From NCBI GenBank assembly GCA_002049455.2, contig KV918776.1:248001-312000 (forward strand): DNA of 64,000 bases, read 5' to 3'. Shown here piece after piece: positions 17,341-60,109 of this stretch. A program made the translations under genes and the position numbers. Below the pieces are notes generated by a model. That model was not told the DNA's origin. It did no database searches and saw nothing but the letters and a program-made list of their open reading frames with translations. Positions within the stretch are counted from its first letter, which is position 1. Every line of letters starts with the position of its first letter. This DNA comes from Porphyra umbilicalis (Eukaryota; Rhodophyta; Bangiophyceae; Bangiales; Bangiaceae).

Positions 17341-18750
17341 GGGGGGGGGGGGGGGGAGAGGGGGGGGGGGGCGGGGTTAGGAGGGGTCGGACGTCTGGAT
17401 GCTAGGGGGAAGGGGGGAACGGGGGCGCTTTGCGGTGGGTGGGACGCGTCGGCGGCGCCGGCGGCGGTGGGGATCGAGCGCGGCGACGGACGTCGGGAGT
17501 GGCGGGCACGGCGCCGTGGCGCACGGAGCATGCCCAGATCCAAGGGCATGAGAGCGGGAGGATAAAAAGAAAAATGAAAAGTGCCGGATCCACGCTGAAC
17601 ACGTGTGCATCCGGTCTTTTGATGGGCGGCGAGTTTCGTACAGGACAGCACTGCGTGGTGGTATGAAGTTCACGGTATATGTTGAGATCCTTTCTTCTGA
17701 AAGAAATAAGGAGGAGTTATCAGGATTCGATAGCATCGAGTTCGTCGGCATATCTCTGGGAAAGTACCAGGATCGGTGTGGGATTATCTCAGGGATTATC
17801 TTCGCGGGCCGTTAGAATAATCCGGCTGATACGCCGCGGAGTTTTACTTGTCCGATCCTAGGATTGCCATGGTCTTCGATGGTGGAACGACCTGGGATCT
17901 GATCGAGGACTGTCTTCAAGATTGTTTGCAAGTTAGTTTCGCGGCGCATCCCATGGCATGGATGCATGACCGCCCAACAGAATAAACCCTGACACAGCAC
18001 CTCTTTACATCCTTCGGACTGGTCCAAATTTAAAACCACATCCATCCTGTGTCATGTACCTGAGGAAAAAGCAGGCGCATCGGTCGACGCGGCCCCCAAG
18101 GACAATCGAAGCGCCTGTTTGAGGGACAAGGATACCGACCGGATGCCCGCCCTTCCGGAGACGTGGTCCGGTGCTTATACTGGGCTTGACACGAGAGATA
18201 GGGAGAGAGATGATCTCGCATGCCTACATGGCATCAGAACGTGGAATGAAGCGAGATGCAACCTTCAGAGCGGTCCTCTCCCTAGGAAAAGGGATTATCC
18301 GTCGGATCGCTGCTTGGAATGCCTCGAGTGACGGCCTCAGTATTATCTGCACGTACAGATCTGAAATTGTCGTCAGAACAGTCTCCAGAACGACCCCATT
18401 TACTCGTCGTCAGACCGTACCCTGTATGCGCAGCCATCATGACCTCATTTTTATCTCCTGTATTATACGTGCGACTTTTTTAAATAAAAAGATGCGGGAA
18501 AAGGCAACAGAAGAAGCACAGAATAAAACCAAAATCAACCCATGGAGAAATATTTTGACAAACAAAGAAAGTCAGGCATAAAAAAGTCTCCACGAACAGC
18601 GCTGCAGTCGCTAACGCCGGCATCGGGGTGTCGTCCGCAAAACATCGGGTCATGGGATGACCTCAAGGCCAGCTCGTGTTCAGTGCAACCCCATCTCTTA
18701 CCGACGTGGTGAGAAGGGAAAACTGTGCTGTTGCAAGTCGTGCTTGTACG
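17341..18750. other. Intergenic with a lower-GC segment at about 17560-18720
   Basis: The composition changes abruptly from over 75% GC to near-balanced sequence at about 17560. The balanced part has recurring words such as gggattatc (17731 and 17791 area, and gggattatccg near 18292) and cctaggat. A similar composition change and similar words (ggaaaatccgac, ggaaaatccgat) occur at 33340-33720. The two patches bracket the JmjC/TNP2 block and could be ends of a large element, but no clean terminal inverted repeat was found. No gene is supported. Confidence 0.3.
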
Positions 18751-19894
18751 CTAGTCACCTTCCTCATCCGATAGATTGATATCGCCAGCCTTGAGGTCCT
18801 TCAACTCGTCACGCATGCACCGGATCACGCCCTTGCGAGCCTCCGTGCTCTCTGGGCGCAAGAACTTCGGGTACTTTGCGGTGTCCACATAGGCTTTCAG
18901 GCAGGCAGCTCCGGCTGCTCGCACGGAGCTCCATATTTCACTCGGGTCCAGAAACAACAGCTCGGCTATGATAGTCGCCGCCGCTCCGTTCATGTCAAGC
19001 GCTCGCTCCATTTCGTGGTCCCCATCTTTGAGCTTCAATCGATACCCCACGTCTGAGTTCATGGCCAGTGCGCCAGCGGCGAGGACATCTGCGGCGTCGG
19101 CAGCGACGACGACACGCTCCATGGAGGCCTCGTTCACGTCATCATCCATGTAAACTCCAAGGGTGCGGTACGCCAGCAGCCGACCCGAGGTACGCCGTCT
19201 ATTGCAGCGGGTACGTAGGCCCTTTTTCAGGGCCTGCTTCACGCCACGACGATTGTTTGACCAGCCGTTGGCACCATAGTCAATCTGGTTCGCATACTTC
19301 TCAATAGCTTTAGTCATGACAGCGCGGAGGGGGCGAGTACAGTCTTTGTTGGGTCCTTCGAGTTGTCCAGATGGGGCCAGCCATGAGAGGCAATCGTGTT
19401 CGGGCGAGTCGACGGCGCTTCCATTTCTTCCGGGGCTCGCAGTTCCTTCGAAGATTTTCTTCAGCATGGCCTGTGCGTATCGTGAAAACAGCGCGCTCAA
19501 CTCATCCTGGAGCCACAACAGATCCAAGAAGATAACAAAGCAATTCCGGTGCTCAACAGTGCGTACGAGTTAGTCTAGAGTCCGACACAGGTACGTAAAG
19601 ATCGGAGGAGATCGGCGAAAGCAAGGCTGCCAGGCACAATGGTCCTTGACTCAAAATGTGAAGAGGTCAACGTACTCGATGTGCGTTCCAGACACTCACG
19701 AAGAGGGCATTGTCGACCAATGGTGAGTGCGGAGGTGCGTCAGGGGCATCATCGGGGTCGCTGTGTGGCATGGCGTCTTCACCCTCAACAGTGTTCTCAG
19801 CCAAGTCACAACAGTGTTCCCAGTCAACGAGCAGTCGTCCCAGTAGCAGGTCAGGGCGTGTCACGTCTAAGCACCGTGGCAGACTGCGCTTCAA
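18751..19894 (-). CDS. Unknown spliced gene beside the tandem array
   Basis: The larger exon (to the stop at 18751) encodes about 260 aa. Upstream, a frame encoding ENTVEGEDAMPHSDPDDAPD and ending DNALF at 19700 is followed by a perfect GTGAGT donor. An acceptor ending TTGAG at about 19555 joins in phase 0 to HRNCFVIFLDLLWLQDEL, the start of the larger exon. The protein has an acidic linker, a helical Leu-rich part (LWLQDELSALFSRYAQAML), a basic segment (KKGLRTRCNRRRTSGRL) and an acidic end (INLSDEEGD). It runs divergent from the JmjC ORF, with the tandem array between them. I recognise no family; a DNA-binding accessory protein of the neighbouring transposon is one possibility. The true 5' end is not found: another GTGAGT donor at 19911 suggests at least one more exon. 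Confidence 0.45.
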
Positions 19895-20740
19895 AGTGAA
19901 TGAGTACTCACCGAGCCGACCTGTTGCAGACGGCGGGGTGTCCGTCCAGGCTCACATCAGAGGATCTCCCAAAAAAAGGGCATGTGACCTCGCCGAGCCG
20001 GATACCGGGCATGTGAGGCCCCTGGCCGCCTCCTCACGGCGGGTGTGACGCGGAGATGGGCTTGGCGTGAAATTATTATCGCATTTATTCCATACGATGG
20101 ACCAGTTGATCACTCACAGGAGAGGCACGCCCAGGAGCGAGCAGGATCTATCGCTAGCGCGATAGATTGCGGCATGCCCGGGCGGGGCAAACCCTTTGGC
20201 GCGCTGGAATCGCTGGAATCGGTCATGCGGCAGATTTCTACGGCCGGCGACAGCGGGTACTTGACACAAAGTGAGGGGCTTGTGGTAATTTTTAACAATT
20301 GATGCGAGATATTGTAACGTATCCGCCTCGCCCGGTCGGCGGCCGACGAGTGATCTGAATCAGATCGGCCCGCACCCTCCACGGCGCGGATAAACTGCGG
20401 AGCACCACACATCCGGAGGAGCGAGGCAGGGGAGCACGCCGCCAGGCCCATCTCCGTGAAGGGGTGCGTGCCGCTGCGGCATGGGGGCGCGCCACACCTG
20501 AAGACCGCCACGCGCGCTCGAGCGTCCACCGTACCGTCGTGCCACTCATCCCTGCCGCCGCTCTTTCTCTCTCAACGTACGTGCGCGACGCACCTCCCGA
20601 TCCCCTCATTGTTTTTTCTCTTTCCCCCTTCCACACTCTCCCCTCATTGTTTTTTTTTCCACCCTTCCACACTCTCCCCCCCGCCCTTTGCCGGCCCACC
20701 CCCCCCCCTCCTCCCCCGCTTGTAATTTTGAGGACCAAGG
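19895..20740. other. Spacer with a CT-rich tract, left of the 164-bp array
   Basis: About 850 bp. 20560-20725 is a pyrimidine-rich tract on the plus strand with two near-copies of a short unit (ctttcccccttccacactctcccctcattg and variants, each given here only by position: 20620-20650 and 20655-20685). No gene is supported. Confidence 0.4.
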
Positions 20741-22053
20741 CTCGTCACCCCGCCGGTGGGTGCAGGCCAGACCTTCGCCGGTCGCCCGAAAGGGCGATCG
20801 TGTCCTGTTTGTGCCGCGGGCTGCGCCCCATTTACTGGGGCCGACCGCTGGGATTTTTCGAGTGGCCGCCACGCCGGGTAGGCGGTCCTCACTGTGCTAT
20901 TTCGGTCGTCACCCCGCCGGTGGGTGCGTACCAGTCTGCCGCCGGTCGCCCGAAAGGGCGATCGTGTCCTGTTTGTGCCGCGGGCTGCGCCCCATTTACT
21001 GGGGCCGACCGCTGGGATTTTTCGAGTGGCCGCCACGCCGGGTAGGCGGTCCTCACTGTGCTATTTCGGTCGTCACCCCGCCGGTGGGTGCGTACCAGTC
21101 TGCCGCCGGTCGCCCGAAAGGGCGATCGTGTCCTGTTTGTGCCGCGGGCTGCGCCCCATTTACTGGGGCCGACCGCTGGGATTTTTCGAGTGGCCGCCAC
21201 GCCGGGTAGGCGGTCCTCACTGTGCTATTTCGGTCGTCACCCCGCCGGTGGGTGCGTACCAGTCTGCCGCCGGTCGCCCGAAAGGGCGATCGTGTCCTGT
21301 TTGTGCCGCGGGCTGCGCCCCATTTACTGGGGCCGACCGCTGGGATTTTTCGAGTGGCCGCCACGCCGGGTAGGCGGTCCTCACTGTGCTATTTCGGTCG
21401 TCACCCCGCCGGTGGGTGCGTACCAGTCTGCCGCCGGTCGCCCGAAAGGGCGATCGTGTCCTGTTTGTGCCGCGGGCTGCGCCCCATTTACTGGGGCCGA
21501 CCGCTGGGATTTTTCGAGTGGCCGCCACGCCGGGTAGGCGGTCCTCACTGTGCTATTTCGGTCGTCACCCCGCCGGTGGGTGCGTACCAGTCTGCCGCCG
21601 ATCGCCCAAACGGGCGATCGAGCTGTCGTGGTGCCACGTGCTGAGCCCCTCTTGCTGGGCTCAGCCGTGTCCCCCTCTTGCCCTGACCATTTGGTCGGGG
21701 ACAGAGGCTCGGCACCCCGCCGGTGGGTGCAGGGCAGACCACCGCCGATCGCCCGATCGGGCGGTCGTGCTTTGGTTGTGCGCCGCGGGCTGTGTCCCCT
21801 TCGCTGGGGCTAACCGCTGGCTTATTAGAGTGGCCGCCACGCCGGGTGGGCGGTCCTCACTGTGTTTTTTCGCTCGTCATCCCACGGGTGCGTGCGTGCC
21901 GGCCCGCAGGTGATCGCCCAGGAGGGCCTGTTCGCTGTTGTGCTGCTGCCGGCTGTGCCCGCTTTCTCGGGCCAGCCGCTGACAGTTGGGCGTGGCCACC
22001 ACTCCGACTGAGTCGTGCTTTGTGACTCGTCACCCCATCTGTGGGTGCGGGCC
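20741..22053 (+). repeat. Tandem array of about 164-bp units with internal palindromes, leading into the JmjC ORF
   Basis: Unit starts (tcgtcaccccgccggtgggt or a variant) fall at about 20741, 20905, 21069, 21233, 21397, 21561, 21706, 21870 and 22027. The central units at 20905-21560 are identical to the base over long stretches; the right-hand ones are diverged and two are shorter (145 and 156 bp). Each unit holds three inverted motifs: gtcgcccgaaagggcgatc, gccccatttactggggc and gtggccgccac. The ATG of the JmjC ORF lies 27 bp inside the last unit, so the array forms its promoter or 5' UTR. Arrays of short hairpin-containing units next to the ends are common in EnSpm/CACTA elements, where an accessory protein binds them; that role is inferred here. 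Confidence 0.9.
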
Positions 22054-25000
22054 ATGGAGGGGCGCGATGCCTCCGAGCCACTCAGGCCTATGCCCGGCGA
22101 AATTTCTCGCAACCAACGTCGCCAAGTGGCACGGGCCCGGCGGCGGGCGGAGGCCATGACCGCCGAAGCAGCCCGTGCGGCTGAAGAAGCCGCGCGAGCC
22201 GTTGAGGCCGCGGATGCGGCCGAGCGCGGGGCCGTGGCACTGGCCCGACGGGCCGAGACTGCTCCCCCACCGGCCCCCACGATTCCGCTCGGTATCAGCC
22301 GCGGAAGCGCTGGCCGGGGCGGTCGTGGCCGCGGACGTGGCCACGGCAGTGCCAGGGGACGTGGCGGTGGCGAGCACCCGCCGGCTCGAAAATTCGGGCC
22401 GTCCCTGCTGCAAGGACAGGTAGATGGCGGCGGATCGCGGCATGGTGCGGTTGCCGACACTGCATCCCACTCAGTGGGGGGGCGCCAACCCCCGCGTGCG
22501 ATGAGGGGACGAGGTCGGCTCGGGGCCCGGGGACCGAGCGTCGAGTGCACTCGCGTGCGGCCAGACGGGGCGCCATCTGGCTGTGACGGGTCTCTGCCGG
22601 CATCGGATGCCATGTCCGTCGTCAACGACGCACGCCGGGTATTGGCTGGTCGATCCGGTGGGCTGACAGCTTCGCAGCTGCGGATGCTCCTGTCCGCCCT
22701 GGAACTGGCTGGGCCGGAGTTTCTTCCCAGCCCCGTCCGGCTGCAAGTGCTGAGACAGTGTCGCGGGGGGTGTGGCGACGTGGAGGCGATTGATTCGCTG
22801 TTGGGTTCCGCTGTAAGGATCTTGCAAGGCGACCGCGGCGGTGTGCCCGACTCGGCCGATACTGCGCCAGCCGGGTTCCTCGTCCAGCAAGCACTGGCCT
22901 CCCACGGATGCAAGGGCCAGTGTCGCGCGGCTGCGCACCGAGCCCCACCTCCTGCCCGCCTCCCGAGTTCTTCTTGTCCACCGGCCGCACCCCCGTCCAT
23001 CCCGCCCCTCCAGCCTTCTGGCCACACCGCGGCAGAGGTGAGCGCTCGCAGGCGTCCACCTCGGCGCCCCGTGCCCCCTCCCCCCAAGCGGTTCCGCGGC
23101 ACGGGGAGCCGCGATGGCGACCCAACATCGACCGCCACCGTCACGACCTTTGCGCCACCGACGCCTCGTGGCGTGCCATCTATGCCATCCACCGCTCGCG
23201 CAGGTGCCGGCCGGCAGGTGCCCTCCGTGCCCGTTGGTCTGGTGCCACCACGTTTTCTTTTTCCCATCCGCGCTGAGCGGCAGCGCGAGCTGTTGACAGC
23301 GGACGTTGCGTCGTTGAGAGACGGCAATGACATGTCAACGCAAATGATGGACGGATTGCTGCTGTGGTTCCTCTACTGGACCAAGAGCGGCGGGGTTAAC
23401 GGGGGCCTGCGCGTGCTTTCGGCTCTCGATGCCCAGGACATCAAGGACGCGTCGATCGACGACAACCTGTTTGTCAACAGGGCCGCTAATGTCCTGCTCG
23501 ACCGCTTCGTGTTCAGCGGCGGGACGGTCCTGATACCAGTTTACAGTGGTCGGGGGTGGTCGGGTGTGGTTGTGAGAGACCTGCACAAGGTCGTGCCCTC
23601 GGTCGCCCAGGCCGTCCTCGATGGCGACGCTCAACCCGTTGCCGGGGCGTTTGTGATCCTCATCAACACGCATGCAGGGAACGGGGGTGCGGAGGTGGAC
23701 TTTGATGTGGTGAATGGCCTCTTCCACTCCTTGACTGCCGCCATCTGTCAGACACGTCTCCGCCACATGGACTCCGTCGGCATGAGAATGCGTGTTAACG
23801 GCTGCCTGCGGACACGGTTGCCCGTGCGTCGGGTGACGACCCCTGACGGGGAGCTCGCGGAGACGGCAGACCACCTTCTGGCGTACTTTGCGTTGCTCTT
23901 GTCCGCTGAGCCGAAAGCAGCAGATTGTCTTTTGCGCACTGACAATGGACTGCAGTGGAGCAAAGCCCATGCCCCCCGGCGGTTACGAGGCCTCGTCCGT
24001 CGCATCGTCGAAGCGCATCGACCGGAAGGCGAGGTCTGGAATGAGCAGGAGCCGGGCGAAGAGCTATTGAACGGTCGCGACGTGTCTGAGGACGAGGTCG
24101 CTGACAGTGGCGATGGCATGCGTGACTTGACGGACGACGACGAAGCTGGCGGAGACGGCAGCACACGCAATGGCGGTCACGATGGCGACGTTGTTGTCGA
24201 CGACCGACCACACGGCGGCGGCCAACGACGGGGACGCGGCGGAGGGCGTGATGGTGGCGATGGGGGACACGTGGGCACCAAGGACGACGCCGCCGGCGAT
24301 GTTGTCGCCGACGACGGGCGTCATGGCGGCGGCCAACGACACGGACGCTGCGGAGGGCACATTGGTGTTGACGGGGGACTCCTTTATGGAAGCGACGCCG
24401 GTGACGCCGGTGGCTACTCACGCGGTCACGGCGCAGGTGCAAACGACGACGCCGCCGACGACGTCGGCGTGGACGACCGACGACAATGCGGCGACCAACG
24501 ACAGGGACGCGGGGGAGGGCATTTCGGTGTCGACGGGGGACACGTGCACGCAAGCAGCGCCGGTGACGCCAGTGGGCGCGCACTAGGTCACGTCGTGGGC
24601 GCCATGGCCGAAGCCGCCGCCGACGTCGTCGTGGACGACGGACCGCACGGCGACGGCCAACGACAACGACGTGGAGGAGGGCGTGTTGGTCACGACGGGG
24701 GACTCGTCGGTGTAGTACCCATCGATGACGCCGCCTCCGAAGTCGTCGCTGACGTCGGACGTCACGGCCGCGGCCAAGGACACGGGCGCGGAGGAGGGCA
24801 CGTGCGTGTTGACGGGGGACACGTGCACGACGGCCGCGCCGGTGACACCGATAGTGACGGTGTTGTCGACGGCCGACCACACGGCGGCGGCCAACGACGG
24901 GGACACGGCGGAGAGCATGTCGGCGTCGACGGGAGACTCGTGCACCCACGCCAGGCCGCTTACGCCGGTGCCCACGCACTCAGTCACGGCGCAAGCGACA

Positions 25001-28000
25001 ACGACGACGCCGCCGCCAACGTCGTCGTGCACGACCGACGACACGGCAGTGGCCAACGACACGTACGCACCGATTCACGTGTTGGTGGCGACGGGGGACT
25101 CGTGGGCGCCAACGATGACGCCGCCGCCGACGTCGTCGTGGACAACCGACGTGGCGGCGGCGGCGCACGACACGGACTCGGTGGAGGGCACGTTGCCGGT
25201 GACGGGGGACACGTGCACAAAAGCCGCGCTGGTGACAATGATGGCCACGCACTTGATGACGTCGTTGGCGGCGACGACAACGCCGCCGCCAACGTCGTCG
25301 TCGACTACCGCCGACAAGGCGGCGGCGAACGACAGGGACGTGGAGGAGGGCACGTTGCCGGTGACGGGGAACACGTGCACCAAAGCCGCGCCGATGACAA
25401 TGATGGCCAAGCACTTGATGACGTTGTTGGCGGCGACGACAACGCCGCCGCCGACGTCGTCGCCGACGACCGCCGAAAATGTGGCGGCCAACGACACGGT
25501 CGTGGTGATGGGAATGTTGGTGGCGACGGGGGATACGTGGGCTCCAACGATGACGCCGCCGCCGACATCGTCGTGGACAACCGACGTGGCGGCGGCGGCG
25601 CACGACACGGACTCGGTGGAGGGCACGTTGTTGGTGATGGGGGACACGTGCGCAAAAGCCGCGCTGGCGACAATGATGGCCACGCACTTGATGAAGTCGT
25701 TGGCGGCGACGACAACGCCGCCGCCAACGTCGTCGTCGACTACCGCCGACAAGGCGGCGGCGAACAAAAGGGACGTGGAGGAGGGCACGTTGCCGGAGAC
25801 GGGGAACACGTGCACCAAAGCCGCGCCGATGACAATGATGGCCAAGCACTTGATGACGTTGTTGGCGGCGACGACAACGCCGCCGCCGACGTCGTCGCCG
25901 ACGACCGCCGACAAGGCGGCGGCCAACGACACGGACGTGGTCATGGGAGTGTTGGTGGCGACGGGGGATTCGTGGGCGCCAACGATCACGTCACCGCTGA
26001 CGTCGTCGTACTCGACCGACGTCGCGGCGGCGGTCAACGACACGGACTCGGTGCAGGGAACGTTGTTGGAGATGGGGGACACGTGCACAAATGCCGCGCT
26101 GGTGACAATGATGGCCACGCACTTGATGACGTCGTTGGCGGCGACGACAACGCCGCCGCCGACGTCGTCGTCGACGACCGCCGACAAGGCGGCGGCGAAC
26201 AACAGGGACGTGGAGGAGGACGCGTTGGTCGCCACGGGGCACTAGTGCGCGCAGGACCCGACGCCGACGCCGCCACAGACGTCGTCGTCGAGGGCCGACC
26301 AAACGGCGGCGGCCAACGACGGGGACGTGGCAGAGGGCATGTCGGCGGCGACGGGGGACCCGTGCACCCACGCCACGCCGCTTACGCCGGTGCCCACGCA
26401 CTCAGTCACGGAGCAAGCGACAACGACGACGCCGCCGCCGACGTCGTCTTGGACGACCGACGACACGGCAGTGGCCAACGACACGTACGCACCGATTCAC
26501 GTGTTGGTGGCGACGGGGGACTCGTGGGCGCCAACGATGACGCCGCCGCCGACGTCGTCGTGGACAACCGACGTGGCGGCGGCGGCGCACGACACGGACT
26601 CGGTGGAGGGCACGTTGCCGGTGACGGGGGACACGTGCACAAAAGCCGCGCTGGTGACAATGATGGCCACGCACTTGATGACGTCGTTGGCGGCGACGAC
26701 AACGCCGCCGCCGACGTCGTCGTCGACGACCGCCGACAAGGCGGCGGCGAACGACAGGGACGTGGAGGAGGGCACGTTGCCGGTGACGGGGAACACGTGC
26801 ACCAAAGCCGCGCCGGTGACAATGATGGCCAAGCACTTGATGACGTTGTTGGCGGCGACGACAACGCCGCCGCCGACGTCGTCGCCGACGACCGCCGAAA
26901 ATGTGGCGGCCAACGACACGGTCGTGGTGATGGGAATGTTGGTGGCCACGGGGAACTCGTGGGCGCGAACGACGACGCCGCCGCCGACGTCGTTGCCGAC
27001 GACCGACGTCGCGGCGGCGGCCACGGACACGGACTGGGTGGAGGGCACGCTGCTTGTGACGGGGGACATGTGCATCAAAGGCGTGCCGGTTACGCCGCCG
27101 GCCACGCAATTGGTCACGGCGCAGGCGGCCACGACGACGCCGCTGCAGACGTCATCGTGGACGAGCGACCAGTCGGCGGCGGCCAACGACACGGACGTGG
27201 TGATGGGAATGTTGGTGGCGACGGGGGACTCGTGGGCGTGAACGACGACGCCGCCGCCGACGTCGTTGCCGACGACCGACGTCGCGGCGGCGGCCAACGA
27301 CACGGAATGGGTGGAGGGCACGTTGCTGGTGACGGGGGACATGTGCATCAAAAGCGCGCCGGTGAATCCGGTGGCCACGCACTCGTTCACGGCACAGGAG
27401 CCAAGGACGACGCCGCCGCCGACGTCGTCGTGGACGACCTACCAGACGGCGGCGGCCAACGACACGGACGTGGCGATGGGAATGTTGGTGTTGACGGGGG
27501 ACTCGTTCGTGCAAAGCAAGCCGCTGAGGCTGTTGGCCACGGGCACAGCCGAGACGTGGCCGACGGCATTGCCAACGACGCATGTAACGCCGGCACAGGG
27601 GAGGGTGAACCCGTTGAACGTCCCACCGTGCGAGTTGGCCGTCTCGGGGGTGGTCTGTCGTTGTTGGGTGGAGTGTCTGTCTCGTGTCGCGATGATCCAT
27701 TGTCTAGCTTAGACGCCGAAGATCTCAGGTTCCTTGCAGGCGCTCTGTCTTCGTCTTGCTCGCCTGAAGGACTCCCGAGCCGTTCTGACCTGTCATGCCC
27801 GCACACTAGCGATGGAGAGCATCTCGGGGCTGTGGTTGCTGTCGCGAGCGCCCAAAACTGCGGTAAATCCGGAGTGGGTGGCGGCTCAGAGGTGCCCGCC
27901 CACGGGCTTGGGTCTCTACAGCGATGCGTCAAGCAGTTCCACTCAGCACCCATAACTAAATTATCATCGGTGCCTGAATTTGGACTGCACAGTCTGATTC

Positions 28001-29724
28001 GATCACACAGTGGGTCAATTCGGACTTTTGGTGCGCACGTGTTCCGCATAGTAGCACCCGAGAAACGCCCTGTGTCCAGTCGTATGCCAAAGCGACTTTC
28101 CGGGGACAAGATCAGGGTGCGGGTTCAAACCTTTCCACAGTTCCCGACCATTGTATGCGACGCATTCTGTGGCCAACCTGCGGCAGACCCTAGCGTTAAG
28201 CGCCAAGAGTTACGTGCTCATCTGCCGTCGGAACGGGAAAGGCGGTGGTCAGGTGCGGAGATCAACACCAAAGTCAGCCAGAGTGCAGACGCCCTTCGAG
28301 CGGAGTACAAACACTTTGATGTGAAACGCTTCCTCAGCAGCGTGAATGATCCGAGCTTGACATGGGTGAGACGGACAACCTCTGCTGGGAACGAGAAGAT
28401 GGTGTTGGGGGGTGAGCCAAGACCAATCGATGTGTACTATCTTTCAGATATGTCACCTCGCAACGAGGATGGATGCGGCAGGAGCCTTGGTGACCCTGCG
28501 TGCACCGCCATCGCGGCTCGTGTTCCTCCTCGCGAGCGATTTGAAAATCCACGCACTCTAAACCACCACACCATGCTCGGTGCCGCATCTACGTACGAAG
28601 GGATTAACACCAACTTGCTCTACATTGGTTCCAGAGGCTCCCACTTCAGCTGGCACGTGGAGGACAGTCTATTACAGTCCACATCGTACTTGCAGAAGGG
28701 CTCCAACAAGTTCTGGTTTTTTATTCCTGCCCCCGAACGTCCGCGAGCGGAGCGCGTCATGCGGGAACACATGGACCCGGCTGTACTTGCAGCGGCTGGA
28801 GGGGATGTATGGGAGGTACTCGCTGTGAAAGCGTGCCTGTGGCCTGCGACTCTTTTCCTAGCGCATGGCGTTCGCGTCGGGTTCCACAAAATGGAGACCG
28901 GTGACTTCGTTGTAACGGGGTACGGAGTACTGCACAGTGGATTCAACGGGGGACCAAACATAGCCTCGGCGGTGAACCTGGCATGCACCGGGTGGCTCTC
29001 GTATGCGATGGAACATGCCGCGCACTGGCGTACAAAGCTCACAATCCACATCCCTTTCGAAAAGTTACTGGTGCTTGCGGCTCAAAAGCTAGCCGATGGG
29101 GAATGGTGGTGCGGCGACGCAAAGACCTATGAATCGTGGGAGCCAGAAGAGTTCAGACGCGATGTGGTCGTGATGGTGTCGTACTTGGAAGAATACCTCA
29201 ACGCTGTCCTCGACTTCATGGAAATGGAATCCCAACCAGGCTGGGGGGGCAAAAAGCCCACTGCTGTGGCCCTGGAAAGCGCATCACGAGCTGTCCAACA
29301 GTTTATCGTTGAAAATGCGATCCAGCCGGACGGTGAGCCCTTGGAGCTCCCGAACGAGATAAAGGGAACTGCTACAGACTACTCTGTCGACGGCGCGTCA
29401 TGCCCGCACTGTGGTGTAGTGACATGGATTTCTACGGTTGTCTGTCCGTCGTGCATTGAGCAGCTCGGTGATGATGCGGTTGCAAATGCGCCACTGTGCT
29501 GCTGGCGGTGTGCACGTGGCATGCTCAATGAAGAGCATGATCGGCTTCGCAAGGGCCTGCAGACTTCGAAGGGCCTGGTGGGATGTCATGCTCCTGTGTT
29601 GGTGCAGCGGCTGGCCAACAGTGACGTGTACCTGTTGGTAGACAAGCTGAAGAGGCTCGGTGGGGGGGGGGGAAGGGTGGCTCTTGAGAAGACTCGTTTT
29701 TGGTTTCCATCGACTGTCTTTTAA
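22054..29724 (+). CDS. Giant JmjC-domain protein with a long Asp/Gly/His-rich repeat region and a possible dead C48-like domain
   Basis: 2,556 aa in one unbroken frame from the ATG at 22054. Residues 1-400: Arg/Ala/Pro-rich, with a basic-acidic helix near the start. Residues about 400-650: a folded-looking region with VLIPVYSGRGWSGVVV (about 491-507) and VILINTHAG; the pattern resembles the core of C48/Ulp1 peptidases, but the catalytic His position is not His. Residues about 705-1850: imperfect repeats of about 37 or 53 residues (core DDAAADVVVDDRR). Residues about 2100-2330: a JmjC domain with H2201 and E2203 (FSWHVED), K2219 (SNKFWFFIP) and H2294 (VLHSGFNGG), the iron and 2-oxoglutarate ligands of KDM4/KDM5-type oxygenases. 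Residues about 2450-2490: a Cys cluster (CPHC, VVCPSC, CCWRC) in the place of the C5HC2 finger of JARID-type enzymes. Predicted activity is lysine demethylation or protein hydroxylation. The stop is TAA. Confidence 0.82.
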   Translation: MEGRDASEPLRPMPGEISRNQRRQVARARRRAEAMTAEAARAAEEAARAVEAADAAERGAVALARRAETAPPPAPTIPLGISRGSAGRGGRGRGRGHGSARGRGGGEHPPARKFGPSLLQGQVDGGGSRHGAVADTASHSVGGRQPPRAMRGRGRLGARGPSVECTRVRPDGAPSGCDGSLPASDAMSVVNDARRVLAGRSGGLTASQLRMLLSALELAGPEFLPSPVRLQVLRQCRGGCGDVEAIDSLLGSAVRILQGDRGGVPDSADTAPAGFLVQQALASHGCKGQCRAAAHRAPPPARLPSSSCPPAAPPSIPPLQPSGHTAAEVSARRRPPRRPVPPPPKRFRGTGSRDGDPTSTATVTTFAPPTPRGVPSMPSTARAGAGRQVPSVPVGLVPPRFLFPIRAERQRELLTADVASLRDGNDMSTQMMDGLLLWFLYWTKSGGVNGGLRVLSALDAQDIKDASIDDNLFVNRAANVLLDRFVFSGGTVLIPVYSGRGWSGVVVRDLHKVVPSVAQAVLDGDAQPVAGAFVILINTHAGNGGAEVDFDVVNGLFHSLTAAICQTRLRHMDSVGMRMRVNGCLRTRLPVRRVTTPDGELAETADHLLAYFALLLSAEPKAADCLLRTDNGLQWSKAHAPRRLRGLVRRIVEAHRPEGEVWNEQEPGEELLNGRDVSEDEVADSGDGMRDLTDDDEAGGDGSTRNGGHDGDVVVDDRPHGGGQRRGRGGGRDGGDGGHVGTKDDAAGDVVADDGRHGGGQRHGRCGGHIGVDGGLLYGSDAGDAGGYSRGHGAGANDDAADDVGVDDRRQCGDQRQGRGGGHFGVDGGHVHASSAGDASGRALGHVVGAMAEAAADVVVDDGPHGDGQRQRRGGGRVGHDGGLVGVVPIDDAASEVVADVGRHGRGQGHGRGGGHVRVDGGHVHDGRAGDTDSDGVVDGRPHGGGQRRGHGGEHVGVDGRLVHPRQAAYAGAHALSHGASDNDDAAANVVVHDRRHGSGQRHVRTDSRVGGDGGLVGANDDAAADVVVDNRRGGGGARHGLGGGHVAGDGGHVHKSRAGDNDGHALDDVVGGDDNAAANVVVDYRRQGGGERQGRGGGHVAGDGEHVHQSRADDNDGQALDDVVGGDDNAAADVVADDRRKCGGQRHGRGDGNVGGDGGYVGSNDDAAADIVVDNRRGGGGARHGLGGGHVVGDGGHVRKSRAGDNDGHALDEVVGGDDNAAANVVVDYRRQGGGEQKGRGGGHVAGDGEHVHQSRADDNDGQALDDVVGGDDNAAADVVADDRRQGGGQRHGRGHGSVGGDGGFVGANDHVTADVVVLDRRRGGGQRHGLGAGNVVGDGGHVHKCRAGDNDGHALDDVVGGDDNAAADVVVDDRRQGGGEQQGRGGGRVGRHGALVRAGPDADAATDVVVEGRPNGGGQRRGRGRGHVGGDGGPVHPRHAAYAGAHALSHGASDNDDAAADVVLDDRRHGSGQRHVRTDSRVGGDGGLVGANDDAAADVVVDNRRGGGGARHGLGGGHVAGDGGHVHKSRAGDNDGHALDDVVGGDDNAAADVVVDDRRQGGGERQGRGGGHVAGDGEHVHQSRAGDNDGQALDDVVGGDDNAAADVVADDRRKCGGQRHGRGDGNVGGHGELVGANDDAAADVVADDRRRGGGHGHGLGGGHAACDGGHVHQRRAGYAAGHAIGHGAGGHDDAAADVIVDERPVGGGQRHGRGDGNVGGDGGLVGVNDDAAADVVADDRRRGGGQRHGMGGGHVAGDGGHVHQKRAGESGGHALVHGTGAKDDAAADVVVDDLPDGGGQRHGRGDGNVGVDGGLVRAKQAAEAVGHGHSRDVADGIANDACNAGTGEGEPVERPTVRVGRLGGGLSLLGGVSVSCRDDPLSSLDAEDLRFLAGALSSSCSPEGLPSRSDLSCPHTSDGEHLGAVVAVASAQNCGKSGVGGGSEVPAHGLGSLQRCVKQFHSAPITKLSSVPEFGLHSLIRSHSGSIRTFGAHVFRIVAPEKRPVSSRMPKRLSGDKIRVRVQTFPQFPTIVCDAFCGQPAADPSVKRQELRAHLPSERERRWSGAEINTKVSQSADALRAEYKHFDVKRFLSSVNDPSLTWVRRTTSAGNEKMVLGGEPRPIDVYYLSDMSPRNEDGCGRSLGDPACTAIAARVPPRERFENPRTLNHHTMLGAASTYEGINTNLLYIGSRGSHFSWHVEDSLLQSTSYLQKGSNKFWFFIPAPERPRAERVMREHMDPAVLAAAGGDVWEVLAVKACLWPATLFLAHGVRVGFHKMETGDFVVTGYGVLHSGFNGGPNIASAVNLACTGWLSYAMEHAAHWRTKLTIHIPFEKLLVLAAQKLADGEWWCGDAKTYESWEPEEFRRDVVVMVSYLEEYLNAVLDFMEMESQPGWGGKKPTAVALESASRAVQQFIVENAIQPDGEPLELPNEIKGTATDYSVDGASCPHCGVVTWISTVVCPSCIEQLGDDAVANAPLCCWRCARGMLNEEHDRLRKGLQTSKGLVGCHAPVLVQRLANSDVYLLVDKLKRLGGGGGRVALEKTRFWFPSTVF
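24170..27600 (+). repeat. Degenerate coding tandem repeats (about 110-160 bp units, with a higher-order duplication)
   Basis: Units begin near gacgccgccgccgacgtcgt and encode DD-A-A-DVVVDDRR, then GGG-x-RHGRGGGHV, then GDGGHVH; long units add a tail coding for KSRAGDNDGHALDDVVGG. Stretches of several units at about 25075-25560 recur nearly unchanged at 26495-26980, a higher-order duplication of roughly 1.42 kb offset. All six frames are mostly open, but only the JmjC frame is open throughout. Confidence 0.85.
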
Positions 29725-29919
29725 TAGTCTCCGGGTCTTGATATCCTAGTTCTGACGTTCCCGGGGGGGGGTTGGGCGTGGAGGTTGGTGTGCTCGCCGC
29801 ATTCTCTTTTTCGTGTGCTCAAGTTCTGTTCCGTGAGGTGATGCATCCAGAGAAAGCAAGATAGTAGTTTGCTCAAAACACCCCGCTACCGCATCTCCAG
29901 TGGCCATTGACACCCCTAG

Positions 29920-32877
29920 TCACCCACTCTTGAAATGGAAGCCAGATCTCTTGGTGAACATGATGTTGTGCTGCCCGCAAGGTAGCACGAAGGCAAGCTG
30001 CCTCACACGGTCAGCTGGTATCAAAGACAATCCAGCTACAGTGTCAATTGTGACCTCAGCAGGCTGTCCTAAGACGCTAAACGCCATCGCTGGTACCTTC
30101 CAGGTCTCACAGGCGATATGGAGCTCGCCATCGATGCTTCCAATCGACTGGACACGGACAAAGCGCCAGTCTTCGCTATCCACCACATCGGAACCGGACT
30201 CGTGTTCGGGGGCGGCTCCATTCTCAAGTAGTGACACTGTGGACCCTTCTCGGATGACAAACGATCGATGCGCTTGCGTGGCTTGGCGCCAGAATTCCAG
30301 AGTCGCGCTGGGCGCACGACTTCTCCAGAACTCCTCCGTGGATCCCAGAACCGTGCGTGCGGCTATTCTTGGACGCCAAAGCATGTTGGTGTACGGTGCT
30401 TGTCGTTTGTGTGGGCCGAGGCTATGAAAAACGACAGACTTCAGTGGCTGGCCTTCTTGACCGAGAAGCCACGAAGCGGGAATCCCATGTGCGCCTGGCA
30501 TGGCCAGCACCCTGGAATATTGCTCTGTGTCTCTCCACCTTTGCATTGAGTACTCAGCGGGGTTCCGACTGTTGCTCTGGCTCACCTCCCGCTTCGAATG
30601 TTGGTGGAACTTCTCGAAAATGAGCTCACTTATCGCGGACCCCAGCTGTGCAAGTGGGAGAGTGCGATATAGCAGTTCCAGTACACGATGCACGGACGGT
30701 CGCTCCCAACTTCCGTTAAAGAGTAACAGTCGACGTAGCTCAATCATGAGGCTCTCGCCGATAACTTGGAGTTCAGCGACGGTCGGCCGCTTTCTCATGG
30801 CCTTCTCCCCGTCGGACGAGGCTGTTGGCACATAGAACAGAGCAGTGGAAAACCGTCGCAGGGCCTTGAGAGCTCTGAGGGTAGCCACCGCATGAGGTGA
30901 AGTGGCAGTGTTATGCACGAGATACTGCAACACTGTGGGGCCTACGGTGAGAAGCACTGCATAGTCTGACATTGACAACGTTGTGCCACCCATTTTTTCT
31001 GGCTCGAATGAGGACAGTATCGTGTGTGTCGGAACATGCTTCGCGCTGCGGCGCATTTCCCGCATGAACTTGTCTCGCTGCTCGACCGAGAGTGCCTCGT
31101 ACGCTTCCATAAGCAGGTGTGAGCCAATGTTGTAGTACAGTAGATGTGAAGGAGCAACTATGACGTGCTCGTGTATGTCAAACGTTCCAGGTCCTCGGGC
31201 CTCTGCCAGGCGCATCATCAAACTGCCAGCCTTGTCTGTAAAGCCGTTCAGTAGGAGTGCGTCCCTCACTGCGTCTGTCGACAGCCCCGGTGTGTTCTTT
31301 ATAACAGACATGATGAGAGAAGTTCGCTCTTGCGTTCTCGAGTACCGTGAATCCTTCACATTGAAAGAAACAGTGCTGCTCATCGCCCGCTCCTTCCTTT
31401 CTGTGACTGTTTTTTTGTGGACAATGTCGCAGCTTGTGCAGTGCTCCGTGCCTTGGGCGCCGATCGAGTTAGAGAACTTTGCGGCCATGGGAAAATCAAA
31501 GACACCGAGACATAGGTATACCCGAATGACAACGCTCTCCTTCTTGAAAGCGTCATAGACAACCAAGCCCTCCTTACCCGCTCTTATCAAGTCGTCGACG
31601 ATCTTTTTGAGCAGGGCTTCCGGGCTTGCTCCTGGGGGTAAGTAGAAGAGAGGACGAACAGAAAACGCACGATCCTCCAAGCACAGAGAGGTGTAACCCC
31701 CGTAGTAGCCCTCCAGGCTTCCACGGCGACGTTTATGCACATTGAACTCGTCCCCGTACAGCGACACATACACTACGTATGGATCCTTCTCGGAGAGGTC
31801 GTCTTCTCTGGGCTCAGCCACACAGGACAGCTCTAAGGGGCTGGCGGCGGTCAAAGCTGACCATGAATCTTTCTCATGCTCGGTGGACTCCCGGACGGCG
31901 ATAACAAACACGCCACCGGACCGCGTGAAGCGTAGTGTAACCCGGCGTTCTTCCGTGAAACATGGAGCCCAGCGCTCTGGCGGCATAAACCCGGGAAGGG
32001 CCTCAAACAGCGCGATTGTGTCACCTACGCGTAGCGTGCGTTCAGATGCATACGTGGACGCCGACGCAGTTACGCATCCATCAGGCGCAATAGAAGTGCT
32101 CAATAAGCGGGCCTCGAACGCGGTCGCGTCATCAAAGGAGACCTTGGCAGTGCATCCAATGTCGAACCTGTATTGTTCACGGAAGAAGACGTTCTTCAAA
32201 TTAAACCTGGCGGGGTCCCTGGCTGCCACTGTTTGAAAGAACTCGGCCGGGCGCTCAGCTGTGCCCATTCGCGAGTCCCCCTTGTTGTGGAACAGAGCTG
32301 CCGTCACAGGATTCGCAAAGTCCCTCTTCAGGTGCTCAGAAAACGTAATGTAAGACACTTCCACGTTCGGCAGTGTGCGCATGGCTTTGCCTTTTCCAAC
32401 AGGTAACTGGCGCGTTGTCTTTTCCCGTCGCAAGGGGATTGCAGACTTCAACATGTGCTCGCGCAGCTTTCGCAAGCGCCACCGCGACGGCCATTTTTCT
32501 GTCGGATAAAAGGAGTTTTCTGCCTCTCGCATAATGTCGTACTGCCTCAGCGTGACACGCGCTCTGCCGTACAGGTATCCGAAGCACAAGAACTCGCGAC
32601 GCGATGCAAAGCCCCCAGCATCGCGGTCCTCGTCGCAGGAGAAGTCCGAGTCTTCTGAGGGACACCCGTCACGCCCAGAGTCGGAGGACAGAGCAACGTC
32701 CTCCCTGGTGCCCGAATCATGTGGGTTTTGGTTTGCCACACTGCATTCGGTATCCTCCAAGTCTACAGCTGGTGCGGCAGAGCCCGATGTCGCTTTTTGT
32801 TCTTCCATATGCAATAGGTTCCCATCATTGAGATCAAAGAAGGCAGCACCTCGCGGGCCACGTCTGCGACGCTTCAT
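29920..32877 (-). CDS. TNP2-type transposase (EnSpm/CACTA superfamily), 985 aa, looks intact
   Basis: An RNase H-fold transposase expected to cut at the element's terminal repeats. One frame from the ATG at 32877 to TGA at 29920. Residues 1-95 are basic then acidic (MKRRRRGPRG, SEDSDFSCDEDRD). Residues about 365-480 hold the catalytic core as seen in Tnp2 proteins: VSLYGDEFNVHKRRRGSLEG with D376, RPLFYLPPGASPE, then CLGVFDFPMAAKFSN with D461, followed by a C-x2-C pair at C480 and C483 (EHCTSCDIV). Later segments HLLYYNIGSHLLMEAY and ELIFEKFHQHSKRE fit the usual helical insertion and distal acidic region. It is convergent with the JmjC ORF, 195 bp apart. GC content is lower than in the neighbouring repeats. 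Fungal Plavaka-like and other EnSpm relatives are the nearest families I can name; terminal repeats were not seen. Confidence 0.82.
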   Translation of the reverse strand: MKRRRRGPRGAAFFDLNDGNLLHMEEQKATSGSAAPAVDLEDTECSVANQNPHDSGTREDVALSSDSGRDGCPSEDSDFSCDEDRDAGGFASRREFLCFGYLYGRARVTLRQYDIMREAENSFYPTEKWPSRWRLRKLREHMLKSAIPLRREKTTRQLPVGKGKAMRTLPNVEVSYITFSEHLKRDFANPVTAALFHNKGDSRMGTAERPAEFFQTVAARDPARFNLKNVFFREQYRFDIGCTAKVSFDDATAFEARLLSTSIAPDGCVTASASTYASERTLRVGDTIALFEALPGFMPPERWAPCFTEERRVTLRFTRSGGVFVIAVRESTEHEKDSWSALTAASPLELSCVAEPREDDLSEKDPYVVYVSLYGDEFNVHKRRRGSLEGYYGGYTSLCLEDRAFSVRPLFYLPPGASPEALLKKIVDDLIRAGKEGLVVYDAFKKESVVIRVYLCLGVFDFPMAAKFSNSIGAQGTEHCTSCDIVHKKTVTERKERAMSSTVSFNVKDSRYSRTQERTSLIMSVIKNTPGLSTDAVRDALLLNGFTDKAGSLMMRLAEARGPGTFDIHEHVIVAPSHLLYYNIGSHLLMEAYEALSVEQRDKFMREMRRSAKHVPTHTILSSFEPEKMGGTTLSMSDYAVLLTVGPTVLQYLVHNTATSPHAVATLRALKALRRFSTALFYVPTASSDGEKAMRKRPTVAELQVIGESLMIELRRLLLFNGSWERPSVHRVLELLYRTLPLAQLGSAISELIFEKFHQHSKREVSQSNSRNPAEYSMQRWRDTEQYSRVLAMPGAHGIPASWLLGQEGQPLKSVVFHSLGPHKRQAPYTNMLWRPRIAARTVLGSTEEFWRSRAPSATLEFWRQATQAHRSFVIREGSTVSLLENGAAPEHESGSDVVDSEDWRFVRVQSIGSIDGELHIACETWKVPAMAFSVLGQPAEVTIDTVAGLSLIPADRVRQLAFVLPCGQHNIMFTKRSGFHFKSG

Positions 32878-34767
32878 GTTTTACTGGATGAGAACAAGTT
32901 GGACTGATCCAGGCACTGACGCGACACGGTGCGACGGGAGGATAGGTGGTACCACAAGCTCTGCATGCGCACGGAGCGGAGGCGGTGAGGCGTGCACGAC
33001 GTCGAAGCAAAACTTTGAAGGGGCAACGGAGGAAGGAACTCTGGCGAAGAGCGAAGAGCGGGGCAAAGCCACCACCGCACGTGAACCAATGGGTGAGGCT
33101 CAGGCTCATGCGCTGGTGGCAACCGAGGCTCCCGTCTTCAGATCAATGTGGTGTGAGGCTCCTCGCCTGATTCCCGGATTCGTGGCCACCCAAGAGTATC
33201 CCGGCTGGTGCTACAAGGTGCACGGACCACTCCTACAGGAGATTTGCGATACAGAGCCTTCTGTTCTGCAGTGATTTGTCTGGCCCACCAACTGTGACCA
33301 GAGGCTATGTTCTGGCTGTACCCTAGGCGTATGCATCGCCTTGCCCGTCGTTTGATCTCGCAGACTATCTGAAGGACAGTCCCCGAAAACAGTCCCCCAA
33401 AACAGGCCTCACCTGATCTTCAACATTATCCTGAGGACGGTCCAGACGACGCAACGGGAAAAGCTCACAGGATAGATTCATGATTAATTCCACGACTCGT
33501 CCTGTACCGAGTAGGAGATCTCGTCCGGACAGTCCTCTGGAAAATCCGACCGACTTCCCTGAGCCGATCTCTGGATCGGTACAGGATGATCTCATGCTTG
33601 CGCCAAACCAACCTCGAGAATCGATGTGGCTGCATAAGAAATTCTATCCTTCATCATATCCTCGGGAAAATCCGATCTCGGGCCCAGGATTAAATAAGGA
33701 CGCGCTCACGTCTCGCCGTGTGGCCATCGGATGGCAAAATGGCACACCGATAGACTTGATCTCACCCCACACCATTGCCAACCCGCACGAGGCCATATGA
33801 CCGCTGGACCGGCGCCAACCGCCGAGCGACGACCGCGCGCGTGGCACGCGGGCACCCGCGCCGCATCGTTGGCCGCCCGCTTCGCGATTGCCACCGCCGA
33901 CGGATCTCGCTGAAGCAGCGGCGGGCGGGGGCACCAACGGCGGGCGGGCGGCGGCAGTCGGCGGCGGTGCGCAGGGCCCGTGACGATACCCATCGACAAT
34001 GACGAGCAGCTTGTGCGTGGCAGCAGTGGGGACCCCGCCGCTATCTTCTGCGCTGCCCAGCGGCGGTACACCACCGCGGCGGCGGCCGCTGCCGGGCGGT
34101 GCCGTCGACCGCACCGGTGTGTAGGCGTTCGCTGGAGCGCCGTCGCTCGACACACGACGCCGACGGCGACCAGCGGCTGTGGTGCCACATGACACGGGGG
34201 CGCACCAGCGGGAGGGCGCAGTAGAGCGGCGCGCGGTGCTTTCAGGCATGGAGGCCCGGCCGGCGAAGACGCGTGCGCCTCGGCTGGAGCAGCAAGCTCG
34301 GCGACCCGCGGAGGCGCTCACCTCGAGTACGACACGTGTCTTGCTGTCCTTATTTGGGGACTCGCGCTGAAGACTGACTCAATTGCTACGGTCGCAAACC
34401 GGGCCTAAAGTTAGTTAAGGCCCAGTGTATCCGCTCTCACGGGCTTTTGAAAAATTTGCTGCACATGGTTGGCTTCGACATCCAAAGGCAACTTCTCATT
34501 GGGTGACTGCCTTCATGTCAGATATTTTCCCACGACTGTTGGAAGGAAGCGTACTGAATTTTCTAGATCACAACATGGCTAATCTCACCTGCGCTCAAGG
34601 CCCAGCACGGGACGGTGGCGAGCGAATCGCTTTCGATCGTTGCGCGAATCTTGAACAGGTCGCGCAGGGGGTTGGTACAGCGGAATCGAGCTCACACCAA
34701 CGAGTGCCTGACGCTACGGCGGCAAAAACAGCGTATCTCCGCCCCTACTTGACCGTGTGAGCTCCTC
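32878..34767. other. Flank of the transposase gene; no gene supported
   Basis: About 1.9 kb. 32878-33340 is the 5' side of the transposase. 33340-33720 is lower in GC and contains ggaaaatccgac (33540) and ggaaaatccgat (33663), plus gatctctggatcggtacagg. 33790-34330 is GC-rich with compositional open frames. 34380-34760 is near-balanced. Nothing here shows a domain. Confidence 0.35.
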
Positions 34768-34967
34768 TTGAGAGCATTGTTGACCATGAGATGCTATCGT
34801 CATCTTCGCGCCACGTTGCGCAACGTGTTCCATCAAGCACCTGAAGTCCGACGTAACACCACTTTTTAGACGAAGAAGCTCTTTTTTTGTTCGGGCCATG
34901 GAATTCTAACTCCCTACTTGATTCTGGCTTCCGCTGACCAAGAATAGCTGTGCGGCTATCGCTTTTC
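34768..34967 (+). mobile_element. MITE-like arm (copy A), inserted at a TA
   Basis: About 200 bp that are over 85% identical, in inverted orientation, to 63340-63530. The right end reads gcggctatcgcttttc and is followed by TA at 34968-34969, then by sequence matching the dispersed repeat at 46918-46939 (reverse complement). The empty site at 46938-46939 has a single TA, so a TA target duplication is likely, as in Tc1/mariner-type elements. Only one arm is recognisable; the left side ends near a gagagcattgttgac motif that also occurs in the core of the large palindrome at 45754. Confidence 0.7.
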
Positions 34968-34969: not shown

Positions 34970-35055
34970 TTTCGAGTCGGAATAGCTTTTAGAGCACGGC
35001 CAACAACACCACATCGAGTCCGATCCCGAACTCATTTAAGGCTGCCACGTTTGTA
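34970..35055 (+). repeat. Part of a dispersed repeat shared with 45690-46975 and 63300-63860
   Basis: Begins ttcgagtcggaatagctttt and continues agagcacggccaacaac. The reverse complement matches the two flanks of the large palindrome (46918-46937 on one side, about 45690-45753 on the other), so this copy is the uninterrupted version of that junction. Confidence 0.75.
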
Positions 35056-59067: not shown

Positions 59068-60109
59068 TCTGCCGTGTCCGTCAGCTTCGCCAGTCGTTGT
59101 CGTCGACGAGCAAGCAGCGTCAAACGGCGTCGCGGCTCACGGGTCACCGTTGCCACACCGCGAGCGTGTGGCGGTTCACGGGTCACCGCAGGCAGCCGCA
59201 CCGCGAGTGGCGTGCGCGCACGAGCGCCCCCCAACGAATGCTTCCAGCGAATGCCTCTGAGATCGGCCACCCCAACGGACCGGTCCTCATGAGCAGTGTG
59301 CACCAGACGTGGCCAGATCTGTTGGGGGCGCGGCCAACTTCTGGCCCATAAATATCAGCCAGCTGGACGGACCCGCCCCAAGCGCTGTTGGGACACATCA
59401 GCACCAGATCTGCTCGGACGTGGCGTCGATGAGGCCCAGGGGCCGCAGATCGGCGAGGCCGGCTGCCAACCGCCACCCTGCATGACCTTCCACGGGTCAC
59501 AGCTGCAAGTTTGGTGCCCAAAGTCCCGGAAATTTATGGGGCTGTGGGGGACCAGCACCAGTCCCTCCGGCAAGACCTCAGACGGTGGCGGGATTGCATG
59601 GGTTGTTTTTGTTTTTGAAAAATCTGGATCTCGACAGCCTGTCAGCCAGCAATGGTGGCACGCGAACTGGTCGGCGAAGGTTCCGAGGACGGGAGTAGCG
59701 CCAGCGCCAAGTTGATCTCTGTCGACTTGGTCCCCGGCACGCCGTCGTGCTTCCCTCTGTTGGCGCCTCCTTCGCCGTTGGTCCCGGTCCCGCTGTCGTC
59801 GCTACCTCTGCCGAGCCTACCGACGGCAGGGGTACACACCGGCGACGCTACTGCGCGGGTGGCAGGGAACCTGCCGGCGGATAAATAAGACGGGTCCCGC
59901 TGCTGGGAAGCGGGGGGGGCGGAAGGGAGGTGGTGGCGACGAAGGCGGTGCGTAGATGGCCGGGGGGGTGCGTGCGCCGCGCGCGTCGTCCCGCTCGACA
60001 GCTACGTCGGCCGCGTACGCGCAGTGCTGCCGCCGTGGCGTGGCGAGCGGGGCCATCCATACCACCCATACACGCACCCAGTTGCGGCGCCGATGGGCGA
60101 CTTAGGCGC
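59068..60109. other. Intergenic: promoter side of the ePHD gene
   Basis: About 1 kb. 59110-59200 contains two near-copies of a gg(c/t)tcacgggtcaccg word. 59600-59890 has a plus-strand frame with no motif. No gene supported. Confidence 0.4.

What the first reader, a model, noticed from the sequence alone, without database searches (positions are those of the whole stretch)
20741..32877. A JmjC oxygenase paired with a TNP2 transposase: a transposon that may carry its own chromatin modifier
Seen: a 2,556-codon ORF with complete JmjC ligands (H2201, E2203, K2219, H2294) ends 195 bp from a convergent, unbroken TNP2-type transposase; a hairpin-rich tandem array leads into the ORF. Known: JmjC enzymes of the KDM4/KDM5 type remove histone methyl marks, and EnSpm/CACTA elements usually carry a transposase plus an accessory DNA-binding gene. 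Some eukaryotic transposons are known to carry epigenetic enzymes (for example TET/JBP genes in fungal KDZ elements). I know of no described EnSpm family with a JmjC partner. Inference: the element could demethylate repressive histone marks on itself or on target chromatin. The Cys cluster after the JmjC domain resembles the C5HC2 finger position.
Basis: partly seen in the sequence, partly recalled or inferred. Interest (0 to 1): 0.88.

Follow-up and report, generated by a model that had tools for sequence, protein, structure and literature searches.

The report
Jumping gene carrying a histone-demethylase-like enzyme
This stretch is a 16-kilobase cut-and-paste jumping gene that carries, besides its transposase, a gene for a JmjC enzyme of the kind that strips methyl marks from histones, and dozens of related copies in the same genome keep the two genes side by side, which suggests that the element brings its own tool against being silenced.

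Summary
The JmjC ORF and the TNP2 transposase are parts of one 16,072-bp CACTA/EnSpm-type element (window 17649-33720) with CACTG...GTG ends. Exact 2-bp target duplications flank 13 of 15 copies whose two ends were read. Joined flanks of 2 of 13 insertions match 25 and 15 uninterrupted sites elsewhere. JmjC lies tail-to-tail beside TNP2 at 44 of 46 merged loci, and by Pfam at 60 of 69 transposases of this lineage against 0 of 67 of another TNP2 group. A third conserved gene sits at the left end. The JmjC core is under purifying selection between subfamilies (dN/dS 0.04-0.10 at moderate divergence). Iron and 2-oxoglutarate ligands are intact in 24 of 30 near copies. The element enzymes split from three presumed host JmjC genes. 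No C5 DNA methyltransferase was detected in the genome. Most likely the enzyme removes repressive histone methylation from the element; that function is inferred, not shown. Transposons with TET/JBP or SET genes are known; my paper searches listed none with JmjC. New variant of a known kind.

The parts
17649..33720 (.). whole element, 16,072 bp, CACTA/EnSpm type
   Evidence: both boundaries shared, to within one base, with copies C27, C20, C101, C26, C149, C12
17649..17658 (+). left terminal sequence CACTGCGTGG
33711..33720 (-). right terminal sequence, CACGGCGAGA read on the - strand (CACAGCGAGA in six of the seven other close copies)
18751..19506 (-). ORF3, exon 2 of the proposed model
   Evidence: 145 matches, fragments included, in own genome and 47 metagenome relatives; model
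19676..19771 (-). ORF3, proposed exon 1 (283-aa product with exon 2; GT..AG intron 19507-19675)
   Evidence: reading frame and splice sites; resemblance to the start of P0063 judged by eye
20742..21620 (.). 164-bp tandem array between ORF3 and the JmjC ORF
   Evidence: the stretch lies in the part aligned to copies C27 and C391
22054..29724 (+). JmjC ORF, 2556 aa
23257..24096 (+). N-terminal region of the JmjC protein, about residues 402-681, no known family
   Evidence: 45-46% identical in two (C87, C64) of five upstream stretches read; not found in C157, C212 and C80; no Pfam family
24283..27541 (+). internal coding tandem repeats (periods of 162 and 435 bp among others)
28618..28977 (+). 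JmjC domain with H2201, E2203, H2294 (Fe) and K2219 (2-oxoglutarate)
29389..29520 (+). Cys cluster CPHC..CPSC..CCWRC (approximate bounds), perhaps zinc binding
   Evidence: present in the relatives that reach this far, P0001-P0005, with one Cys changed in P0017
29920..32877 (-). TNP2 (Transposase_21) transposase, 985 aa; proposed D376, D461, E755 with C480-x2-C483

Best explanation
A CACTA/EnSpm-type DNA transposon of an unnamed eukaryote that carries three genes: the TNP2 transposase, a large JmjC 2-oxoglutarate oxygenase, and a small gene of unknown function. Shown: it is one mobile unit with fixed ends and 2-bp target duplications, and the JmjC gene is an old, selected part of it. Inferred: after expression, the JmjC protein acts on histones and removes repressive lysine methylation from chromatin of the element (and perhaps of targets), so that the transposase and the other genes can be expressed; its repeats, N-terminal region or Cys cluster, or the ORF3 protein, would supply targeting. 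The host shows no detectable C5 DNA methyltransferase, so a histone eraser would fit better than a DNA one.
For: Mobility: shared ends, 2-bp duplications in 13 of 15 copies with both ends read (chance 2e-14), uninterrupted sites for 2 of 13 joined flank pairs (25 and 15 matches across the junction). Linkage: 44 of 46 merged TNP2 loci tail-to-tail with JmjC, 40 of 46 within 600 bp; 60 of 69 against 0 of 67 in the other TNP2 group, within 8 kb; both distant JmjC loci examined (42-44% identical) also have TNP2 at 44-45% identity; JmjC and TNP2 identity to the window proteins correlate, Spearman 0.79 over 43 pairs that are not independent. Third gene upstream in divergent orientation at 70 of 105 JmjC hits. 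Function kept: ligands intact in 24 of 30 near copies and in 12 of 17 further copies of the clade; dN/dS of the JmjC core 0.04-0.10 at moderate divergence, TNP2 0.11-0.16. Class: best solved matches are JMJ13, KDM4 and KDM5. Host: 0 hits for PF00145, 85 for SET.
Against: No activity shown. JmjN, PHD, Tudor and C5HC2 domains of KDM4/KDM5 were not found by Pfam, and JmjC enzymes can have non-histone substrates. Six of 30 near copies have a changed ligand; between near-identical copies dN/dS is 0.31-0.56 for the JmjC region. Nine of 69 lineage transposases have no JmjC within 8 kb, not examined one by one; 45 of 105 JmjC hits have no PF02992 hit within 8 kb and 32 of 105 no ORF3 within 20 kb. The N-terminal region was found in only two of five other copies read. 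AlphaFold models were too poor to use. The window's own copy lacks a matching duplication. Absence of PF00145 can be a miss in split genes.
Confidence: 0.66

Rival explanations
1. The JmjC gene is a true element gene but does not erase silencing marks: it modifies the transposase or another non-histone protein, or removes activating marks (KDM5-like) to limit the element's own expression or copy number.
For: Matches to KDM4-type and KDM5-type structures score alike (65-72 bits for the best of JMJ13, KDM4D and KDM5A); no JmjN or reader domain found.
Against: The 58 solved sequences matched by the profile at E<=0.001 are, by their names, lysine demethylases KDM4/KDM5, JMJ13, JMJ14, RPH1, JARID2/Jumonji, one '2-oxoglutarate oxygenase' and one rice protein; restraint would not be expected to stay selected in several subfamilies (inference).
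Confidence: 0.25
2. Passenger: a host JmjC gene was captured once by an element and is carried without benefit.
For: Transposons do pick up host genes (general knowledge).
Against: Purifying selection on the JmjC core between subfamilies and catalytic residues mostly conserved down to 37% identity; presence at 60 of 69 lineage members.
Confidence: 0.05
3. Remnant of an endogenised giant virus with KDM4-like genes, as reported in Amoebidium.
For: KDM4-like JmjC genes are enriched in such insertions (PMC11244446, passages read).
Against: Unit is 16 kb with transposon ends, 2-bp duplications and a TNP2 transposase; no relative confirmed in the viral contigs.
Confidence: 0.02
4. Chance neighbours or assembly artefact.
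For: The window copy's left flank does not match that of C391, which shares its right flank.
Against: The same arrangement at 44 of 46 merged loci.
Confidence: 0.01

Closest known systems
EnSpm/CACTA transposons encoding TET/JBP dioxygenases in fungi (Kojima 2025, PMC12730594; abstract, section 3.1.5, first part of the Discussion and passages read)
   Same: CAC..GTG ends, short target duplications, EnSpm-type transposase, accessory Fe/2-oxoglutarate oxygenase proposed to counter silencing
   Different: enzyme is TET/JBP acting on DNA, not JmjC; duplications 3 bp there, 2 bp here; many transposon lineages in fungi there, one TNP2 lineage of one genome (plus metagenome relatives) here; the word JmjC does not occur in that paper's main text
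SET-methyltransferase-carrying HarbingerS and MuDR elements of Phytophthora (cited in PMC12730594, passage read)
   Same: transposon carries a histone-modifying enzyme
   Different: methyltransferase, not demethylase; other superfamilies
KDM4-like JmjC genes in endogenised giant viruses of Amoebidium (PMC11244446, passages read)
   Same: mobile invader with expanded KDM4-like JmjC genes, proposed counter to host chromatin silencing
   Different: large viral insertions, not a 16-kb DNA transposon
Plant Vandal (MuDR) elements with a regulator of their own silencing (passage in PMC12730594) and Spm TnpA (recalled, no call)
   Same: element-encoded anti-silencing
   Different: not a JmjC enzyme

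Membership tests
EnSpm/CACTA (CMC) DNA transposon | Transposase_21 (TNP2) type transposase | tested here: met
   PF02992: 26.6 bits as protein (cut-off 28.6), 29.5 bits over cut-off in the genome search, as are many other copies
EnSpm/CACTA (CMC) DNA transposon | 5'-CAC..GTG-3' ends, often CACTA/CACTG | tested here: met
   CACTG at the left end, GTG at the right end in copies of several subfamilies
EnSpm/CACTA (CMC) DNA transposon | 2-3 bp target site duplication | tested here: met
   2 bp in 13 of 15 copies
EnSpm/CACTA (CMC) DNA transposon | DDE residues with C(2)C and H(3-4)H between second D and E | tested here: inconclusive
   D376, D461, C480-x2-C483 and E755 proposed; H730 present but the position 4 further is E, not H; assignment by eye
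EnSpm/CACTA (CMC) DNA transposon | arrays of short subterminal repeats (recalled) | tested here: inconclusive
   two 6-mers with 7 copies each slightly exceed shuffles (95th percentile 6); no clear array
KDM4/KDM5 histone demethylase | JmjC domain with H-x-E...H and Lys ligands | tested here: met
KDM4/KDM5 histone demethylase | JmjN, C5HC2, PHD/Tudor/ARID domains | tested here: not met
   only JmjC passes in Pfam; so it is filed as a JmjC oxygenase of that type, not as KDM4 or KDM5
KDM4/KDM5 histone demethylase | demethylase activity on histone lysines | not testable with these tools
   needs biochemistry
TET/JBP-carrying transposon | TET/JBP dioxygenase gene | tested here: not met
   the oxygenase is JmjC; no TET/JBP family among the Pfam hits of ORF1, ORF2 or ORF3

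The most novel reading that the evidence does not exclude
A histone demethylase is a fixed core gene of an old CACTA transposon lineage and lifts histone-based silencing in a host that lacks cytosine DNA methylation: transposons capture the eraser that matches the silencing mark of their host (TET/JBP where DNA is methylated, JmjC where histones carry the mark).
Probability: 0.45. Interest if true: 0.9.

Novelty: new variant of a known kind. Interest (0 to 1): 0.8.

Why it matters
It would be a transposon lineage that has kept a histone-demethylase-like gene under selection through deep divergence, with dozens of natural variants in one genome. It makes testable whether mobile DNA can erase histone silencing marks by itself, and whether the kind of eraser captured follows the host's silencing system.

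Tried and rejected
Ulp1/C48 peptidase idea for residues about 400-660 of ORF1: no such Pfam hit in the window sequence or in copies C87 and C64, dropped. C5HC2 finger: no hit. Structure predictions of the JmjC region (mean pLDDT 42.1) and ORF3 (41.6) were too poor, so no fold search was made. Viral-contig scans for JmjC and TNP2: no confirmed relative. tblastn of the JmjC region against plasmids: no match. TNP2 profile against solved structures: 0 hits. SET genes as partners of TNP2: 6 pairs within 20 kb for the other TNP2 group against 2.7 expected, three of them with near-identical spacing of about 10.4 kb and possibly one duplicated segment; 0 pairs against 2.8 expected for this lineage. 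The host organism could not be named with the tools at hand.
Full report
What is there. The two ORFs are as described: JmjC ORF 22054-29724 (+) and TNP2 ORF 29920-32877 (-), 195 bp apart, tail to tail. Pfam gives JmjC (E=6.9e-15) and Transposase_21 (E=4e-6, slightly below the curated cut-off as a protein). The C5HC2 resemblance is not supported: Pfam gives only a weak hit to another family (DUF7575, E=0.84) at that place.

The genome. The last 574 residues of the JmjC protein have 79 matches there, 42-100% identical, and the transposase 49; only the best candidates were scored (76 of 163 and 46 of 305), so these are lower bounds. After merging fragments, 44 of 46 TNP2 loci have a JmjC match tail-to-tail within 10 kb, one has one in another orientation, one has none; 40 of 46 are within 600 bp. 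Twenty-nine of 75 merged JmjC loci have no match to this TNP2 protein within 10 kb. By Pfam models there are 136 TNP2 and 105 JmjC hits. I split the TNP2 hits after the fact by where they start in the profile (position 60 or later: 69; earlier: 67). JmjC lies within 8 kb at 60 of 69, always tail-to-tail, and at 0 of 67 (Fisher p 2e-29, which ignores that copies are related). The 9 of 69 without JmjC were not examined one by one. Forty-five of 105 JmjC hits have no PF02992 hit within 8 kb. Three of these (C263, C30, C344) look like host genes, judged by their place in the tree, low identity to the element enzyme (30-35%) and absence of ORF3 nearby, though 29 other JmjC hits also lack ORF3 within 20 kb. 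Two distant ones that I read (C212, C31) do have a TNP2 at 44-45% identity that the Pfam search had not listed.

Element ends. DNA searches show that similarity to other copies stops at window 17649 on the left and 33720 on the right. Six of seven close copies end at the same right base or one base off; C391 shares the right flank beyond it. The left end reads CACTGCGTGG, the right end, from outside in, CACGGCGAGA (CACAGCGAGA in six of the seven other close copies). Two-bp duplications are exact in 13 of 15 copies where both ends were read: C27, C20, C26, C149, C12, C391, C117, C17, C294, C301, C62, C64, C15; they fail in C101 and in the window copy. In four further copies (C80, C98, C157, C2) one end was not found or not fetched and they are left out of the count. 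The chance of 13 of 15 is 2e-14. Joined flanks with the duplication kept once match uninterrupted sites for two of 13 insertions: 25 places for C117 and 15 for C26, each across the junction at 97-100%. For the other 11 no match spanning the whole joined site was reported; only 40 candidates were scored.

The window copy. It shares 2.8 kb of right flank with C391 at 100% (to the end of that contig) but not the left flank. C391 itself has the TG duplication. So one of the two has been rearranged inside the element, or the assembly joined two copies; this cannot be settled here.

Third gene. Window 18751-19569 (-) is conserved: 145 matches, fragments included, in the genome, and 70 of 105 JmjC hits have one within 20 kb upstream on the opposite strand, against 0.07 expected per JmjC hit in any orientation. 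Splice signals suggest a two-exon gene of 283 residues. No Pfam family at E up to 0.1. Its conserved basic stretch (GLRTRCNRRR) hints at nucleic-acid binding, by eye only.

N-terminal region of the JmjC protein. About residues 402-681 are 45-46% identical in copies C87 and C64; in the other three stretches read (C157, C212, C80) the region was not found, apart from a weak 56-residue match in C157. Whether it was lost there or lies outside the stretches read was not settled.

JmjC enzyme. Solved-structure matches are JMJ13, KDM4D, KDM5A and relatives (best E=2.8e-19; profile, best E=5.6e-24). Ligands H, E, K, H are intact in 24 of 30 near copies; of 17 further copies of the clade read, 12 are intact, 4 changed and 1 only partly covered. 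Nei-Gojobori dN/dS was computed for chosen representatives. For the C-terminal region it is 0.12-0.24 between subfamilies at 61-86% identity, and for the JmjC core 0.04-0.10 where dS was finite; TNP2 gives 0.11-0.16. Many of these pairs have dS above 1.3, so the ratios are approximate. More distant pairs give 0.17-0.26 for the region and 0.19-0.22 for the core, or infinite dS, and are saturated. Near-identical copies give 0.31-0.56 for the region and 0.25-0.76 for TNP2, as expected of recent transposon copies. In a tree of 39 JmjC rows, the 36 element-type rows (33 from this genome, 3 metagenome relatives) are split from the three presumed host rows by a branch with support 100/98. The host rows and one element-type row are long branches, the tree has no outside reference sequences, and not every element-type row was checked for a TNP2 neighbour.

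Elsewhere. Relatives occur in metagenome proteins: 24 for JmjC, 13 for TNP2, 47 for ORF3 at E<=0.001. Equal longest-contig lengths for P0005 (JmjC) and P0031 (TNP2), and for P0026 (TNP2) and P0048 (ORF3), suggest linkage there too, unproven.

Mechanism. Shown: a mobile unit with a conserved and selected JmjC gene. Inferred: the product is a histone lysine demethylase that opens chromatin of the element. In support, no C5 DNA methyltransferase was found in the genome while SET domains are plentiful, so the silencing mark may be on histones. The exon-by-exon search can miss split genes, and none of the ten control genomes named as hits is a eukaryote, so its power here is untested.

Literature. 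TET/JBP genes in fungal transposons including EnSpm, and SET genes in HarbingerS and MuDR, are described (PMC12730594; abstract, two sections in whole or part, and passages read). KDM4-like genes in endogenised giant viruses are described (PMC11244446; passages read). Eight paper searches that could have shown a JmjC-bearing transposon listed none by title or start of abstract; apart from the two papers above I read none of the listed papers, and searches listed 20 of 31 and 15 of 20. The library holds open-licence papers only and Repbase was not searched, so an earlier description elsewhere is possible.

Noticed in passing
window 49892-51226 (-): Another transposase: DDE_3 with HTH_23.
   Followed up: no
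window 57931-59136 (-): PHD-like zf-HC5HC2H zinc finger ORF.
   Followed up: no
window 34989-36600: A second repeat, 90-97% identical at ten other places in the genome (some partial), begins 1.3 kb right of the element.
   Followed up: no
window 34412-34772: A 361-bp repeat at 83-88% identity at 17 other places listed.
   Followed up: no
L091 and L092 (C15 copy): This copy sits in the middle of a palindromic target: its two flanks are inverted repeats of each other, by eye.
   Followed up: no
G000 contigs C5, C313, C482: Three TNP2 genes of the other group each have a SET domain about 10.4 kb away; could be a SET-bearing element or one duplicated segment.
   Followed up: partly
own genome: 85 SET hits, many in long open frames, look like a dispersed multi-copy family.
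   Followed up: no
window 17649 and 33721: The window copy and C391 share the right flank but not the left flank: a rearrangement or an assembly join inside the element.
   Followed up: partly
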